From assembly GCA_026390575.1 (NCBI GenBank), contig JAPLFR010000001.1, forward strand, positions 372,001-436,000: 64,000 nt of DNA, written 5' to 3'. Within the stretch, counting starts at the first letter, position 1; the number at the start of each line of letters is the position of its first letter. This document shows, piece by piece, positions 15,695-24,592 of this stretch. The notes below the pieces were generated by a model. That model did no database searches. It was given only the letters and a program-made list of their open reading frames with translations, and was not told the DNA's origin. Position numbers and translations under genes: made by a program. The stretch comes from Ignavibacteriales bacterium. GTDB taxonomy: Bacteria > Bacteroidota > Ignavibacteria > UBA10030.

Positions 15695-16789
15695 TTATGA
15701 CCGGATGAATAACTTACCCGGAAGTTGACGGACAACGCCCTTGAATTCTAATGAAAGCAATGTCACTAATGCATCAGGTGTGGACATTTCTGTCTTCTCA
15801 GAAAGCGCGTCAATGTGCATTGGCTCATCTGAAAGAAGTTGAAAGAGTGATTGTTCAGTCGGTGTCAGGTCAACGTGTACCTTACTATCGTTCTGGTCAA
15901 ATGAAAGATGGAGCTGAGATGCCAGCTCATCAAAAATATCTTGAGCATTTGTAATAAGCTTGGCGCGTCCTTCTCGGATAAGTTTATTTGATCCGCCGCT
16001 GCGTTTTTCTGTAATGTTGCCAGGCACAGCAAAGACCTCGCGATCTTGATCAAGTGCTGTTGTTGCTGTAATCAAAGCACCGCCCTGTTCAGCAGATTCG
16101 ATAACGACAGTACCTAAAGAAAGACCGCTAATAATGCGATTACGCCGCGGAAAATTCGGTGCGTCGGGCTTCGTGCCCATAGAAAATTCCGAAACGACCG
16201 CACCTTCTTCGGCTATATGTTCCATCAGTTTTTTATTCTCCGGAGGATACGGGACGTCCAAGCCGGAGCCAATAACAGCAATAGTTCGAGTTTCGCATTT
16301 CAGGGCAGTTGAATGGACAATTGTATCCACGCCGCGGGCTAATCCGCTTACGATAGTAATGGATCGTTGAGCAATTTCACGAGTAAGACTTTCCGCAACA
16401 GTATGACCGTACGGAGAGGGATGACGTGTACCAACAAGCGCGAGGGAACGAGCATCAACTTCTTTAAATTTTCCGAGGATAAAAAGGAGTGCAGGCGGAT
16501 CATAAATTTTACGAAGGAGATCAGGATATTCTTTGTCCCACAGGGTGAGGATTCTACCGCCGAGTTTGTTCAACCGCTTCAATTGCTCATCGGCAAACTT
16601 TTCTCCTGTTACGTGATGAAGAATGTTTGAAGCGAGTTTTTTATCGATTCCAGGAACGGCGATCAGCTCGTGTGCAGATGCATGGAAAACATTATCGGAT
16701 GTTTTGAAGTGCGCGACGAGCGCGCGAATTTTCTGCGGACCAATACGCGGTACGGAGGAAAGCCGGAGAAGTTCGCGAACGTTGATCAT
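15695..16789 (-). CDS. dprA: DNA-processing protein DprA
   Basis: DprA protects incoming single-stranded DNA and loads RecA during natural transformation. The order of domains is an N-terminal helix-hairpin-helix part (SVPRIGPQKIRALVAHF, VPGIDKKLASNIL), the Rossmann-like DprA domain (ALVGTRHPSPYG, SGLARGVDTIVHSTAL, IAVIGSGLDVPYP, FPRRNRIISGLS) and a C-terminal winged helix (about residues 300-364). I used ATG 16789; a TTG two codons upstream is possible. No other competence genes are nearby. The downstream neighbour is the DUF3109 gene, 47 bases away. Confidence 0.95.
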   Translation of the reverse strand: MINVRELLRLSSVPRIGPQKIRALVAHFKTSDNVFHASAHELIAVPGIDKKLASNILHHVTGEKFADEQLKRLNKLGGRILTLWDKEYPDLLRKIYDPPALLFILGKFKEVDARSLALVGTRHPSPYGHTVAESLTREIAQRSITIVSGLARGVDTIVHSTALKCETRTIAVIGSGLDVPYPPENKKLMEHIAEEGAVVSEFSMGTKPDAPNFPRRNRIISGLSLGTVVIESAEQGGALITATTALDQDREVFAVPGNITEKRSGGSNKLIREGRAKLITNAQDIFDELASQLHLSFDQNDSKVHVDLTPTEQSLFQLLSDEPMHIDALSEKTEMSTPDALVTLLSLEFKGVVRQLPGKLFIRS

Positions 16790-16816
16790 ATTCAAAAATA
16801 TATTGGTTGAGAGTAG

Positions 16817-17092
16817 TTATGCCGCCGGAATATCCATTCCATCTACCACCGCAACAATCACCGAATGCACGGGAATGTCTTCACGCTTCAGAATTTGCCG
16901 GGCGCCGGTGCCTTCCTGCATCACCAGGACGGTATCGCCTATGCCGGCATCTACATGATCGATAGCAATTAAATCGCGCCCTATGAATGCGCCCGTGAGA
17001 TCAATAGGCTGAACGATAAGCAATTTGTATTCACGCAGTGTCTGGTTCTTCTGTGTGGCAACAAGAGTACCGATGACTTTCGAGAGAATCAT
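16817..17092 (-). CDS. EutN/CcmL-type bacterial microcompartment vertex protein (orphan)
   Basis: The 91-residue protein matches the EutN/CcmL family, whose pentamers cap the vertices of bacterial microcompartments and carboxysomes. It begins MILSKVIGTLVATQKN, continues with LLIVQPIDLTG and VAIDHVDAGIGDTVLV-like residues (DLIAIDHVDAGIGDTVLVM), then ends VHSVIVAVVDGMD. The start has a GAGG ribosome site 8 bases upstream, and the previous gene stops 14 bases before it, so it is cotranscribed with the paralogous envelope genes and dprA. No hexameric shell protein (BMC domain) or encapsulated enzyme set is present in this window, which makes the context odd. Confidence 0.9.
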   Translation of the reverse strand: MILSKVIGTLVATQKNQTLREYKLLIVQPIDLTGAFIGRDLIAIDHVDAGIGDTVLVMQEGTGARQILKREDIPVHSVIVAVVDGMDIPAA

Positions 17093-17106: not shown

Positions 17107-18207
17107 TTAGTGCGGTGCATATAATCCAAATCCAAACGGAGAATATTGCATGGTGATACCAGCGGAATATGTTCCGCCATCACCAATCGTAAAAAAGAAT
17201 CCCGGTGAAAATGGCGAAGCGCTCAAGACACCGGGGTAAATGTTGAGACGAATGCGTTCCAGGTAGAATTCGGAAATGAGCAGCGACGCGAGAAGTGAGT
17301 TGTTCCGATCGTAAAATAATCCGCACGATGCTCCAACATGGATAGAATTGGTTCCGATGCCATTTGTTTCATCAACGACCCATACGCCCGTTTGTGTGGC
17401 GCCCGCGCCAAAAGAGACGGCGTTTTCGTTATCCGTTTTCACCGAGAGGCCGAGCAATGTCGATTTGCCGAGATACAGGAATGCGCTGGTGTGTTTCGAT
17501 TCAGTGATCGGATAGCGCGCGACAAAACTATGGCCAAAGTTTCTAAAAGAAAGCGGCCTAAAAGAGAAAGACGGCTGCGGCGACCAGTCGTTCAAACCAA
17601 ACTCGGAAGAAAAATATTCTGCAACACCGTCGAAACTAAAAAACACAATTCCAAGCGGATCGAATATGCAGAAGTCGGCAATCGCATCAGTGTTCCCGTG
17701 AATAGAGGGGCCATTCTCAACAAGTTCATTGAGGAAGTGATAACCCATCGCTGTCGCTGCACCAAAGACAAAGGGCAGCGGATAACCGTGATAGTCGTAC
17801 CATTCAGAAAGTTTTCGGTACTCCATGCCGCCGCCGATCAGATGAAGAGTATAATTCGGGGCCCATTGTGCTTTTGTAATATTGAAACTTGTAGGAATCA
17901 CTTCCTGACTGAGAAATTTATTCCAGCCATACTCGCTAATATAGTAAGCCGGTGATGTAACACTTCGCCAGACACTTGTGCCCTGTGTGTTCCATAAAAT
18001 GTCGTCTGCCCTGGTTGAACTGCTGTATGACTGAAGTACATCAAATCCGCCGTTCATGAGGACACCGATAGGATTAAACATTGCCTCCGAGCCGTAGTCG
18101 AGCGGCCTATAGAAAAAGTACTTCTTTTCTTGAGCAAAGACGACAGTGTTCCCTATGAGACATAAAGATAATATGATAATAATTTTTTGTACTAACATAT
18201 CTTTCAT
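17107..18207 (-). CDS. Putative envelope protein of unknown function, paralogue A
   Basis: A signal peptide (residues about 5-25, ending VVFAQ) precedes a mature part beginning EKKYFFYRPLDYGSE. Conserved blocks shared with the next upstream gene are PNYTLHLIGGGMEYRK, YHFLNELVENG and FDPLGI followed by FSFDGV. The C-terminal half alternates hydrophobic residues like a beta barrel and ends FGFGLYAPH. The conserved His/Glu/Asp residues in the first half suggest a membrane-linked catalytic or binding core, loosely like DUF2279/DUF3943 proteins, but this is inference. I chose ATG 18207; the 20 residues upstream look non-signal-like. ATG 18198 is also possible. Confidence 0.75.
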   Translation of the reverse strand: MKDMLVQKIIIILSLCLIGNTVVFAQEKKYFFYRPLDYGSEAMFNPIGVLMNGGFDVLQSYSSSTRADDILWNTQGTSVWRSVTSPAYYISEYGWNKFLSQEVIPTSFNITKAQWAPNYTLHLIGGGMEYRKLSEWYDYHGYPLPFVFGAATAMGYHFLNELVENGPSIHGNTDAIADFCIFDPLGIVFFSFDGVAEYFSSEFGLNDWSPQPSFSFRPLSFRNFGHSFVARYPITESKHTSAFLYLGKSTLLGLSVKTDNENAVSFGAGATQTGVWVVDETNGIGTNSIHVGASCGLFYDRNNSLLASLLISEFYLERIRLNIYPGVLSASPFSPGFFFTIGDGGTYSAGITMQYSPFGFGLYAPH

Positions 18208-18288
18208 TCTGAAATAATCTTTGTCAAAAATCATTAAGATAATACTCGGAATCATGCAATGATGCAAGCAGTTTCCTCATAGTGCTTA

Positions 18289-18320: not shown

Positions 18321-19418
18321 TCAAGGTTTATTCATACTTATACCAACAGGAAGAAACGATGCCGTTATTCCAAGAGTGAATGTGCCGCCTTTGCCAACAA
18401 GCAAGAAAAATCCTGGTGAGAATGATTTAATGGAGAATACACCGGGATAGATGTTTAAAAGTACAAGACCGCGAAAATTATCGGAGGCGATGAGCGACGC
18501 CATAAGAGAATTATTGCGATCCCAATATATTCCAGCACGAGGCCCCGTTGTTATGGTATTTCGCGGTACACCGTTAGCGTTAAAGGTTGTTTCAACAGTT
18601 CGAGAAGTTACTCCGACTCCTAGAGAGAGAGCATCTTCGTTGTTCGTTTTTAAAGAAAGTCCCAACTCTCCAAAGGAACCAAAATGATACAAAAGACTGG
18701 TTTTTCCCGATGCGGTGAGCGGATACTTCATGATAAAATTTTGTCCTGTGTTGTGAATGCCCAACGGCGAAAATGAGATCGCAGGTTGATTATTCCAATC
18801 GTTCAAGCTCACCTCTGAAGAAAAGAATCGGCAAACTCCATCAAAGCTGAATAACAGTATCCCCAAAGGATCAAAGATAAGGAGGTCGGCGATCGGATCG
18901 ACGTTTGGACCTTGATAGTCGCCATTCTCGACTATTTCGTTGATATAGTGATACCCCATAGTGCTGATGATCGCCCACACTGATGGTACCGAATAGCCAT
19001 AGTAATCGAACCATTCTACGGCTTTTCGGTACTCCATACCGCCGCCGATAAGATGTAATGTGTAATTGGGAAAGTACTGAGCGTTATCCATATTGAAGCT
19101 GCCCGGAATTACTTCGTGGAAGATGAACTCATGCCATCCATACTTGTTAATTTGTGGAAACGGTGCGATGATGTTATATCGGACATTCTTCTCGCCATTC
19201 TTCCATGGAATATCCGAAAGGGCAGATGAACGCCAGTACGATTGGAGTTCGTCAAACCCACCATTTGCGATCAGTGATATAGGATTAAAGGTTGACTCCG
19301 AACCATAGTTGACTGGATGGAAAAAGAAGTAATTCTTTTCCTGTGCGAGTGACTTGACAGAATAACAAAAGGAGAGGAAGGCAATGAAAAGAATTTGCAG
19401 GCGAAAAAAAGCTCTCAC
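18321..19418 (-). CDS. Putative envelope protein of unknown function, paralogue B
   Basis: This gene is a clear tandem paralogue of the one at 17107-18207: YFFFHPVNYGSESTFNPISL, PNYTLHLIGGGMEYRK, YHYINEIVENG, FDPLGILLFSFDGV and GIYWDRNNSLMASL all have counterparts in the same order. It has a signal peptide (hydrophobic residues 6-20, ending SLAQ) and a beta-rich C-terminal half. Its ATG at 19418 overlaps the stop of the mutase gene by 4 bases, so the two are translationally coupled. The pair probably arose by local duplication and has diverged well. Function is unknown; an outer-membrane location is inferred. Confidence 0.75.
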   Translation of the reverse strand: MRAFFRLQILFIAFLSFCYSVKSLAQEKNYFFFHPVNYGSESTFNPISLIANGGFDELQSYWRSSALSDIPWKNGEKNVRYNIIAPFPQINKYGWHEFIFHEVIPGSFNMDNAQYFPNYTLHLIGGGMEYRKAVEWFDYYGYSVPSVWAIISTMGYHYINEIVENGDYQGPNVDPIADLLIFDPLGILLFSFDGVCRFFSSEVSLNDWNNQPAISFSPLGIHNTGQNFIMKYPLTASGKTSLLYHFGSFGELGLSLKTNNEDALSLGVGVTSRTVETTFNANGVPRNTITTGPRAGIYWDRNNSLMASLIASDNFRGLVLLNIYPGVFSIKSFSPGFFLLVGKGGTFTLGITASFLPVGISMNKP

Positions 19419-20770
19419 TTCGCGAGTATCTCCTCGGTGAACTTCTTCACGAATTCGTCTGCTTCAGCTTTCGTATGTGCTTCCGCGATAATGCGGATGA
19501 TCGGTTCGGTGTTCGATTTCCGGAGATGCACCCATGCATCCGGGAAATCAATCTTCAATCCATCGTCGGTATTCATTACTCCAGTTGAAGAAAATTTCTC
19601 TTGAAGACGCTTCATAATCGCGTCAGCGTTTAGGCTGCCGAGTTCTATTTTCCCTTTTGTAATCAAATATTGAGGAAGTGTAGCTTTTAGTTCCGACATC
19701 GTGCCGCCGAACTCCAATAAACTTTGGAGAACAAGTCCGATGCCAACTATGGCGTCGCGGCCAAGATGCACTTTCGGAAGAATAACACCGCCGCTTCCTT
19801 CACCACCAATAATTGCCCCGACTTCCTTCATCCTTTTCGCAACATTGATTTCACCGACGGCTGTACGATATGTTGTTCCTCCATAGCGGTTTACTATATC
19901 ATCGACCGCTCTTGTCGTTGAAAGATTCACTACAACTTTCAGATTGTTCAGTTTTTCCTTTTTCAAAACAAAGTTGATGCAGGTTGCAATTGTGTATTCT
20001 TCAACAAATGGTTCACCTTTCTCGTTGATGAGGACGAGACGGTCAACATCGGGATCGACGGCAATTCCAATATCAGCTTTGACTTCGCGGACCTTTGCAC
20101 ATAGTGCAGTAAGATTTTCCGGGATTGGTTCAGGTGTATGACCAAATATGCCGGTGACTTCACAATAAAGCGGAGTGACTTCACAGCCAAGTTTTTCCAA
20201 CAAACGCGGAACGATAATTCCGCCAGCCGAATTCACACAATCTAGCACAACTTTAAATTTGCGAGCGCGAATCTTTCCAGTATCGATATAGGCAAGCGAT
20301 AGCACTTGGCAGATATGTTCATCTAAAAACGCTTCGTTCAACTCATACGTGCCTTGCTTATCCCACGGAACATATTTTGCAGAATGTTCGGCAAGATGCC
20401 AGAACTTCAGATTTTCATCTGCATCCAAAAATAATCCAGTGGGCGCAAAGAATTTCAATCCGTTCCACATCATAGGATTATGGCTTGCAGTAATTGAAAT
20501 ACCGCCGGTGGATTTTAGTTTCTCGACGGCAAGTGCGACAGTTGGTGTTGGACAGATCCCCAAATCAGTCACATTGCAGCCCATTTGGCGTAGTGTGGAA
20601 ACGACGATGTCTAAAATGTTCTTGCCTGTAACGCGGCCGTCCCTGCCAACGATAATATGACCACGATTGCAGAACTCAGAGTACGCCGATGCATATTTGA
20701 CAATTGTTTCGGGGGTCAAAGTTTCGCCGACGACACCGCGAATTCCAGAGATACTTACCATTAATGCCAT
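19415..20770 (-). CDS. Phosphoglucomutase/phosphomannomutase family protein (PMM/PGM/GlmM-like)
   Basis: An alpha-D-phosphohexomutase of 451 residues. The phosphoserine is S96 in TASHNP, the metal-binding loop is DPDVDR (239-244), and the sugar-binding loop reads GGEGSGGVI rather than the GEQSGH of typical bacterial GlmM. The C-terminal phosphate-binding segment has SNTEPIIRIIAEA. The loop resembles archaeal-type phosphoglucosamine/phosphomannomutases, so the exact hexose substrate is unsure. It is the first gene of the nine-gene minus-strand run, coupled to paralogue B by a 4-base overlap. Confidence 0.92.
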   Translation of the reverse strand: MALMVSISGIRGVVGETLTPETIVKYASAYSEFCNRGHIIVGRDGRVTGKNILDIVVSTLRQMGCNVTDLGICPTPTVALAVEKLKSTGGISITASHNPMMWNGLKFFAPTGLFLDADENLKFWHLAEHSAKYVPWDKQGTYELNEAFLDEHICQVLSLAYIDTGKIRARKFKVVLDCVNSAGGIIVPRLLEKLGCEVTPLYCEVTGIFGHTPEPIPENLTALCAKVREVKADIGIAVDPDVDRLVLINEKGEPFVEEYTIATCINFVLKKEKLNNLKVVVNLSTTRAVDDIVNRYGGTTYRTAVGEINVAKRMKEVGAIIGGEGSGGVILPKVHLGRDAIVGIGLVLQSLLEFGGTMSELKATLPQYLITKGKIELGSLNADAIMKRLQEKFSSTGVMNTDDGLKIDFPDAWVHLRKSNTEPIIRIIAEAHTKAEADEFVKKFTEEILAK

Positions 20771-24286: not shown

Positions 24287-24338
24287 AGAATTGATGTTAT
24301 GCACTGGAGATTCTTTAAAAAGCATTATAGCTATTATA

Positions 24339-24506
24339 TGGTTGTCCACCTCCCCATCCCGATATAATTATAGATCGTGTCGGGATTTGAGGCTTTCTAA
24401 AAAGTCCGGAGTTGTCATGCTGAACTCGTTTCAGCATCTGTCTTTTGTAAAAAATTAGACCCCGAAACAAGTTCGGGGTGACATTTTCTTTCTTTTTGGA
24501 CAACCA
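24339..24506. repeat. Composite inverted-repeat element with nested hairpins
   Basis: This fills the 306-base gap between the Memo and DUF2520 genes. Outer 10-base inverted repeats are TGGTTGTCCA (24339-24348) and TGGACAACCA (24497-24506). Inside is a hairpin with arms ATCCCGAT and GTCGGGAT (about 24355-24386). A second composite unit at 24414-24482 has ends GTCA and TGAC. It contains arms ATGCTGA/TCAGCAT (24417-24437) and ACCCCGAA/TTCGGGGT (24459-24479). The inner unit resembles the interspersed repeats built on TGCTGAACTCGTTTCAGCA seen in many bacterial genomes. No coding sequence is present. Confidence 0.75.
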
Positions 24507-24592
24507 CGATGAAGTGGTGATGTACATTCTTCTTTTTCATTCCTTGTTTATCAAGATATAAAATGGTTTTTGTCATACCAGTAGGGAATTAA

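What the first reader, a model, noticed from the sequence alone, without database searches (positions are those of the whole stretch)
16817..17092. Orphan EutN/CcmL vertex protein inside a housekeeping operon
The 91-residue protein is a clear EutN/CcmL family member (pentamers that close microcompartment vertices), but no BMC-domain shell hexamer or encapsulated enzyme is in the 64-kb window. It is 14 bases downstream of a paralogous envelope gene and upstream of dprA. Either a shell locus lies elsewhere, or the vertex protein has been recruited to another role, perhaps linked to the sugar mutase operon.
Basis: partly seen in the sequence, partly recalled or inferred. Interest (0 to 1): 0.62.

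Follow-up and report, generated by a model that had tools for sequence, protein, structure and literature searches.

The report
Vertex protein of scattered DNA-sugar organelle
The lone shell gene is not an orphan: it encodes one of three corner proteins of a bacterial protein-walled organelle whose parts lie in at least six places on the chromosome, and the genes that come and go with it suggest the organelle breaks down deoxyribose phosphate, a sugar from degraded DNA.

Summary
A 91-aa EutN/CcmL protein is encoded on the minus strand at 16817-17092, and no BMC-domain gene lies in the window. It is not an orphan. The genome carries two more BMC-P genes (tandem, on another contig), a BMC-H pair and a BMC-T beside a PduS-like gene. 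This is a dispersed shell with a BMC-P triplet, like the published "FRAG" microcompartments of Ignavibacteriae, which have no obvious signature enzyme.

Across 61 related genomes, eutN sits between glmM and dprA in every locus read that holds this orthologue. In shell-less relatives it is cleanly missing there. Three unlinked enzyme versions are found almost only in shell-bearing genomes: DeoC with an N-terminal encapsulation-like extension, an extended RpiB paralogue, and an acetylating aldehyde dehydrogenase ending in an encapsulation-like peptide. Shell-less relatives keep ordinary DeoC and RpiB. Six phylogenetically independent comparisons agree.

Best reading: a deoxyribose-5-phosphate metabolosome with SPU-type enzymes, encoded in at least six places, for which this protein caps vertices. 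Neighbouring glmM, dprA and the envelope genes look incidental, since they persist without the shell. No encapsulation or activity was tested. Phosphotransacylase and NAD recycling remain open.

The parts
16817..17092 (-). eutN-like BMC-P (shell vertex) gene, 91 aa; one of three BMC-P paralogues of a dispersed microcompartment
15695..16795 (-). context only: dprA, the conserved downstream neighbour; not thought to belong to the compartment
   Evidence: present without eutN in shell-less genomes
17107..18267 (-). context only: second of two paralogous envelope-like ORFs; an insertion between glmM and eutN in this genome, also found in shell-less relatives
   Evidence: no Pfam match
18321..19418 (-). 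context only: first of the two paralogous envelope-like ORFs
19415..20770 (-). context only: glmM (phosphoglucosamine mutase, TIGR03990 514 bits), the ancestral upstream neighbour of eutN; single copy and independent of the shell

Best explanation
The protein is a BMC-P pentamer that caps vertices of a metabolosome whose genes are scattered over at least six places of the chromosome. Shell: this eutN; a tandem BMC-P pair next to deoB; a BMC-H plus a BMC-H with a C-terminal tail; a BMC-T next to a PduS-like flavo-iron-sulphur protein. Inferred cargo: DeoC with an N-terminal encapsulation-like peptide, an RpiB paralogue with an N-terminal module, and an acetylating aldehyde dehydrogenase (EutE-like) with a C-terminal encapsulation-like peptide. 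Inferred pathway: deoxynucleosides -> deoxyribose-1-phosphate -> (DeoB) deoxyribose-5-phosphate -> (DeoC, inside) glyceraldehyde-3-phosphate + acetaldehyde -> (aldehyde dehydrogenase, inside) acetyl-CoA. The shell retains acetaldehyde. Electrons may leave through PduS and the cysteine-bearing BMC-T where these exist. Shown here: the genes, their conserved positions, their joint presence and absence, and the extensions. Inferred: assembly, encapsulation, direction of flux and physiology.
For: Own genome holds 3 PF03319 and 4 PF00936 matches at dispersed sites. Among 47 genomes at least 90% complete and without a compact BMC locus, the dispersed BMC-P genes go with: BMC domains 29 both/1/1/16 neither; EP-bearing aldehyde dehydrogenase 30/0/1/16; extended DeoC 28/2/1/16; extended RpiB 30/0/0/17. 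Six independent pairs on the supported GlmM tree all agree, median p 0.03 (0.06 for RpiB). The order glmM-(insert)-eutN-dprA is kept in all 36 loci read from other genomes that hold the orthologue. Shell-less genomes, including the closest sister G004 (GlmM 90% identical), have glmM-dprA without eutN. BMC-P pair-rpoD-nlpC-def-fmt is kept in nearly all 20 loci read, with deoB adjacent or near in 16. BMC-H and its tailed partner are adjacent in 20/20. The DeoC extension is present in all 29 extended homologues read, absent or decayed in the shell-less ones read. The aldehyde dehydrogenase C-terminal peptide (GTGISEEEIDRIIREFxKR type) is in all 30 read; it scores 614.7 bits to acetylating acetaldehyde dehydrogenase TIGR02518, just under the 620.1 cut-off. 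BMC-T and PduS-like genes coincide in 22/22 genomes, pore-region Cys in 21/21.
Against: No direct proof that any of these proteins assemble together. No PduL phosphotransacylase in any genome whose only shell is the dispersed one, and the Pta that exists is universal, so internal CoA recycling is unexplained. NAD recycling is unexplained in genomes without PduS/BMC-T. G016 has BMC-P but no BMC domain or DeoC hit, and G022 lacks DeoC (draft genomes). G036 has extended enzymes and BMC-H/T but its BMC-P genes sit in a compact locus. The DeoC helix is not markedly more amphipathic than shuffles of its own residues (19% reach it), though the aldehyde dehydrogenase peptide is (4%). The RpiB paralogue has lost the cysteine found in the ordinary copy, so its reaction is uncertain.
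Confidence: 0.8

Rival explanations
1. A real dispersed microcompartment with this vertex protein, but the main substrate is not deoxyribose-5-phosphate: acetaldehyde or another aldehyde comes from an unidentified source, and DeoC/RpiB are secondary or regulatory cargo.
For: FRAG compartments are published as having no obvious signature enzyme (PMC8217296); the RpiB paralogue has Asp in place of the ordinary copy's Cys; G016 and G022 have shell genes and the aldehyde dehydrogenase but no DeoC found.
Against: DeoC extension and shell go together in 44 of 47 good genomes; deoB sits beside the BMC-P pair in most loci read; the aldehyde dehydrogenase is of the acetaldehyde-acetylating type; G016 and G022 are incomplete drafts.
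Confidence: 0.13
2. The EutN-like protein has been recruited to a role outside a shell, tied to its conserved neighbours glmM or dprA.
For: The glmM-eutN-dprA order is kept over six families of the order.
Against: glmM-dprA stands without eutN in shell-less genomes; GlmM is universal and single copy; eutN tracks the remote shell genes; the other shell loci also have conserved housekeeping neighbours (rpoD, def, fmt), so conserved position is not special to this one.
Confidence: 0.04
3. A redundant duplicate or decaying relic of a complete shell operon elsewhere.
For: Two more BMC-P genes exist in the genome.
Against: Three BMC-P orthologous groups form three separate sides of the tree (support 95, 97, 89) and each keeps its own location; the protein is 63-75% identical across families with 44 invariant positions in six sequences; no operon with both BMC-H and BMC-P was found in this genome.
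Confidence: 0.03

Closest known systems
FRAG bacterial microcompartments (Sutter et al. 2021, PMC8217296)
   Same: Shell genes scattered over several loci, a BMC-P triplet, reported in Ignavibacteriae and related phyla.
   Different: Published FRAG types have no obvious signature enzyme; here unlinked enzymes with encapsulation-like extensions are tied to the shell by joint presence and absence. The BMC Caller colour HMMs that define FRAG1-7 were not available.
SPU (sugar phosphate utilisation) microcompartments (Axen 2014, PMC4207490; Sutter 2021)
   Same: Same enzyme set: DeoC aldolase (PF01791), RpiB type isomerase (PF02502) and an acetaldehyde-type aldehyde dehydrogenase.
   Different: SPU enzymes and shell genes are in one locus; here they are in at least six places. 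No PduL. The BMC-T resembles PduT rather than the CsoS1D/CcmP-like BMC-T reported for several SPU types (recognised here only by family score).
HO microcompartment of Haliangium ochraceum
   Same: BMC-P triplet; some HO genomes have a DeoC with an EP-like N-terminal extension at another genomic place (PMC8217296).
   Different: HO is described around a main locus; no locus with both BMC-H and BMC-P was found here.
PduS/PduT redox module of the propanediol compartment (PMC2982820)
   Same: PduS-like flavo/4Fe-4S protein encoded next to a BMC-T with a conserved pore-region cysteine.
   Different: No cobalamin-dependent diol dehydratase was seen at these loci (the genome was not searched for one), so a role in electron export rather than corrin reduction is inferred; the NCBIfam score to PduT is below its cut-off.

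Membership tests
EutN/CcmL vertex protein (BMC-P, PF03319) | Full-length match to the PF03319 domain above its cut-off | tested here: met
   88.3 bits against cut-off 25, residues 1-84
EutN/CcmL vertex protein (BMC-P, PF03319) | Sequence relation to solved BMC-P pentamers | tested here: met
   6.7e-13 to 4n8x, 2.8e-12 to 6owf; profile 6.2e-17
EutN/CcmL vertex protein (BMC-P, PF03319) | Predicted fold like EutN | tested here: inconclusive
   Only six sequences in the alignment; model pLDDT 54
EutN/CcmL vertex protein (BMC-P, PF03319) | Forms pentamers at shell vertices | not testable with these tools
   Needs expression and structure
FRAG microcompartment | Shell genes in several separate loci, with no main locus holding both BMC-H and BMC-P | tested here: met
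   Four shell loci in the own genome
FRAG microcompartment | BMC-P triplet | tested here: met
   Three BMC-P genes in three orthologous groups
FRAG microcompartment | Shell protein colour composition by the published HMM set | not testable with these tools
   BMC Caller HMMs not available
FRAG microcompartment | Occurs in Ignavibacteriae or related phyla | tested here: met
   Homologous eutN loci are titled Ignavibacteria, Bacteroidota and Chlorobiaceae; the window genome itself is unnamed
SPU microcompartment | DeoC aldolase (PF01791) as BMC enzyme | tested here: met
   TIGR00126 285 bits; extension tied to shell presence; encapsulation itself untested
SPU microcompartment | RpiB type isomerase (PF02502) as BMC enzyme | tested here: met
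   Extended paralogue, shell genomes only; its Cys is replaced by Asp, so activity uncertain
SPU microcompartment | Acetaldehyde-type aldehyde dehydrogenase | tested here: met
   TIGR02518 614.7 bits, just under the 620.1 cut-off; EP-like C-terminus
SPU microcompartment | Enzymes and shell genes clustered in one locus | tested here: not met
   At least six separate places; therefore works like an SPU, not filed as one
PduS/PduT module | PduS homologue beside a BMC-T with a pore cysteine | tested here: met
   22/22 genomes with both; Cys in 21/21
PduS/PduT module | Family score over the PduT equivalog cut-off | tested here: not met
   TIGR02526 127.6 bits against 250.3

The most novel reading that the evidence does not exclude
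At least one class of 'fragmented' (FRAG) microcompartments, so far without a known function, is a deoxyribose-phosphate (DNA-salvage) metabolosome whose parts are encoded beside housekeeping genes and kept or lost as a set although unlinked, with DeoC losing its targeting peptide whenever the shell is lost.
Probability: 0.7. Interest if true: 0.72.

Novelty: new variant of a known kind. Interest (0 to 1): 0.62.

Why it matters
The 2021 catalogue lists FRAG microcompartments as enigmatic and without a signature enzyme (PMC8217296). Joint presence and loss across related genomes gives a specific, testable cargo list for one lineage: DeoC, an RpiB paralogue and an acetylating aldehyde dehydrogenase. 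It also shows a multi-part organelle being kept or lost as a unit with no operon holding it together, and offers natural before/after pairs of DeoC with and without its targeting extension. I found no paper in the library searched that makes this assignment; most subscription papers are not in it.

Tried and rejected
Role tied to the sugar mutase: rejected, because GlmM is universal, single copy and beside dprA with or without eutN. Role tied to the envelope ORFs: rejected, because related ORFs persist next to dprA in shell-less G001, G003 and G026. EutN remnant in shell-less genomes: none found between glmM/OMP and dprA. PduL as phosphotransacylase: absent from genomes whose only shell is the dispersed one. 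Pta as a shell-linked phosphotransacylase: universal, not linked. RNA families in the window: none. AlphaFold2 of EutN: low confidence, no fold search run. Missing eutN in G005, G022 and G051 is probably an assembly gap: those same three drafts also lack glmM. One Pfam call failed on wrong coordinates and was repeated without that protein.

Full report
Observation. The gene is on the minus strand, 16817-17092, 91 aa; the given coordinates carried no strand, and the + strand is not open. Pfam PF03319 covers it end to end (88.3 bits, cut-off 25). Solved vertex proteins (CcmL, EutN, BMC-P) are its nearest structural relatives by sequence.

The rest of the shell. In the same genome (16 contigs, 99.9% complete) PF03319 matches twice more, in tandem at C16:334917-335447. 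PF00936 matches at C15:62153 and 62506 (a BMC-H and a BMC-H with a C-terminal tail) and twice within one BMC-T at C1:342392-342901, about 46 kb from eutN. Reading those places shows the BMC-P pair beside deoB with deoC a few genes away, and the BMC-T directly behind a PduS/RnfC-like gene. NCBIfam and Pfam support DeoB, DeoC, PduS-like and PduT-like assignments, the last below its equivalog cut-off.

Conserved places. In the orphan loci read from relatives, eutN lies between glmM and dprA in every case where this orthologue occurs: 36 loci from relatives' genomes and public contigs, with G036 (which has no orthologue there) as the only exception among the 37 read. L012 and L062, and L010 and L081, look like copies of the same public contigs (same lengths), so the number of independent loci is slightly lower. 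In most, eutN directly follows glmM; the two envelope ORFs of this window are an insertion. The BMC-P pair keeps rpoD, nlpC, def and fmt on one side and a GGDEF protein, usually with deoB, on the other; BMC-H and its tailed partner are neighbours in 20 of 20. A tree puts the three BMC-P groups on three separate sides, one change each, once the divergent G036 sequences are left out. So this eutN is a stable orthologous group, not a stray copy.

Joint presence and absence. Of 61 genomes, 42 have PF03319 and 42 have PF00936, nearly the same ones. Some carry a different, compact BMC locus, mostly with PduL (G013, G025, G028, G029, G031, G036, G049), and were set aside. Four of the five other genomes of the window's own genus lack every shell gene. 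Shell-less genomes, including the sister G004, have glmM next to dprA, at times with an envelope ORF between, and no eutN remnant. Since the shell genes lie in at least four places, one deletion cannot explain this; the parts are lost as a functional set. GlmM is universal and single copy.

Cargo. DeoC is present in most genomes, but in shell-bearing ones it has a roughly 65-residue N-terminal extension: a helix of the encapsulation-peptide kind (MDKxxILKLIDEVLKE) followed by a conserved CxDGxCxDxLCVVHNK stretch. Shell-less genomes have a short DeoC; G004, G001 and G003 keep what looks like a decayed remainder of the extension, and G057 keeps a helix-like relic. An acetylating aldehyde dehydrogenase at C9:139999-141729 has a C-terminal tail ending in an encapsulation-like peptide; it is found in 36 genomes, all with at least part of a shell, and the peptide is in all 30 copies read. 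A second RpiB with a roughly 70-residue N-terminal module occurs only in shell-bearing genomes, while the ordinary copy is widespread. Among 47 genomes at least 90% complete, the extended RpiB matches the BMC-P genes with no exception, the aldehyde dehydrogenase with one (G051, a draft that also lacks glmM), and extended DeoC with three. Fisher p values (1e-9 to 4e-13) ignore kinship; the kinship-aware test gives six independent pairs, all in agreement, median p 0.03 (0.06 for RpiB). The three extended enzymes lie in three different places, only DeoC near a shell gene.

Redox module. PduS-like and BMC-T genes occur together in 22 genomes and apart in none outside the compact loci, and the BMC-T has a conserved SICSGK cysteine in 21 of 21. 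In the Pdu system PduS binds PduT, and electron passage out of the compartment was proposed (PMC2982820). The same use here is inference. About two fifths of the good shell-bearing genomes lack the module.

Mechanism. Deoxyribose-5-phosphate, formed by DeoB, would enter the compartment; [quoted passage not shown] the aldehyde dehydrogenase would turn acetaldehyde into acetyl-CoA; the shell, closed by pentamers including this protein, would hold acetaldehyde back. The pathway chemistry is as described for DeoC/SPU enzymes (PMC4207490, PMC8217296). Its location inside this shell is inferred from joint presence, extensions and gene neighbourhood.

Comparison with what is known. Dispersed shells with a BMC-P triplet in Ignavibacteriae are published as FRAG types, without an obvious signature enzyme (PMC8217296). 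The enzyme set matches SPU, but the single-locus feature of SPU is not met, so I do not file it as SPU. I call it a FRAG-like compartment that works like an SPU. The FRAG colour HMMs could not be run.

Limits. The relatives are mostly drafts with coded names; absence in a draft may be a gap. Presence calls for enzymes were set by score and by where the match begins, then checked by reading most, not all, sequences. Encapsulation peptides were recognised by position and pattern; the DeoC helix is not exceptional in amphipathicity. Literature was searched only in the open-licence library.

Noticed in passing
L206:2834-3508 (own genome C2) and L207-L221, L226-L241: The shell-linked RpiB paralogue has Asp where the ordinary RpiB copies of the same genomes have Cys (GIMIDxVG against GILICGTG), in nearly all copies read; the pattern was not found in L242. 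Its substrate may differ.
   Followed up: partly
L015:5290-6177 (DeoC N-terminus): Between the helix and the aldolase domain lies a conserved CxDGxCxDxLCVVHNKxGVxNIV stretch present in shell genomes only; possibly a metal site or a second docking element.
   Followed up: partly
L014:9953-10618: The second BMC-H protein has a long acidic/proline tail ending in a weak Rho_N-like match (18.8 bits, below the 24.9 cut-off), kept beside the first BMC-H in 20/20 loci.
   Followed up: partly
G036 (L066, L187, L233, L252): This relative has extended enzymes, BMC-H pair and BMC-T but no BMC-P at the usual dispersed sites; its three BMC-P genes sit in a compact locus with PduL and another aldehyde dehydrogenase, as if two systems share vertices.
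   Followed up: no
L015:10315 to about 11430 (minus strand): deoB of the own genome has no ATG, GTG or TTG start at the expected place; the reading frame is intact upstream and the relative G005 has ATG there. Possibly a rare start codon.
   Followed up: partly
window 24315-24527 and L014:16877-17101: Spurious ORFs with nearly the same peptide (ENVTPNLFR.LIFYK.QMLKRVQHDNSGLFR) point to a dispersed repeat in this genome.
   Followed up: no
L170, gap between the OMP2-like ORF and dprA: In shell-less G003 the gap between the envelope ORF and dprA holds a palindrome-like stretch (CCTCCTTACCAAGGAGGTGAATAAGGGGAGG) that may be a small mobile element.
   Followed up: no
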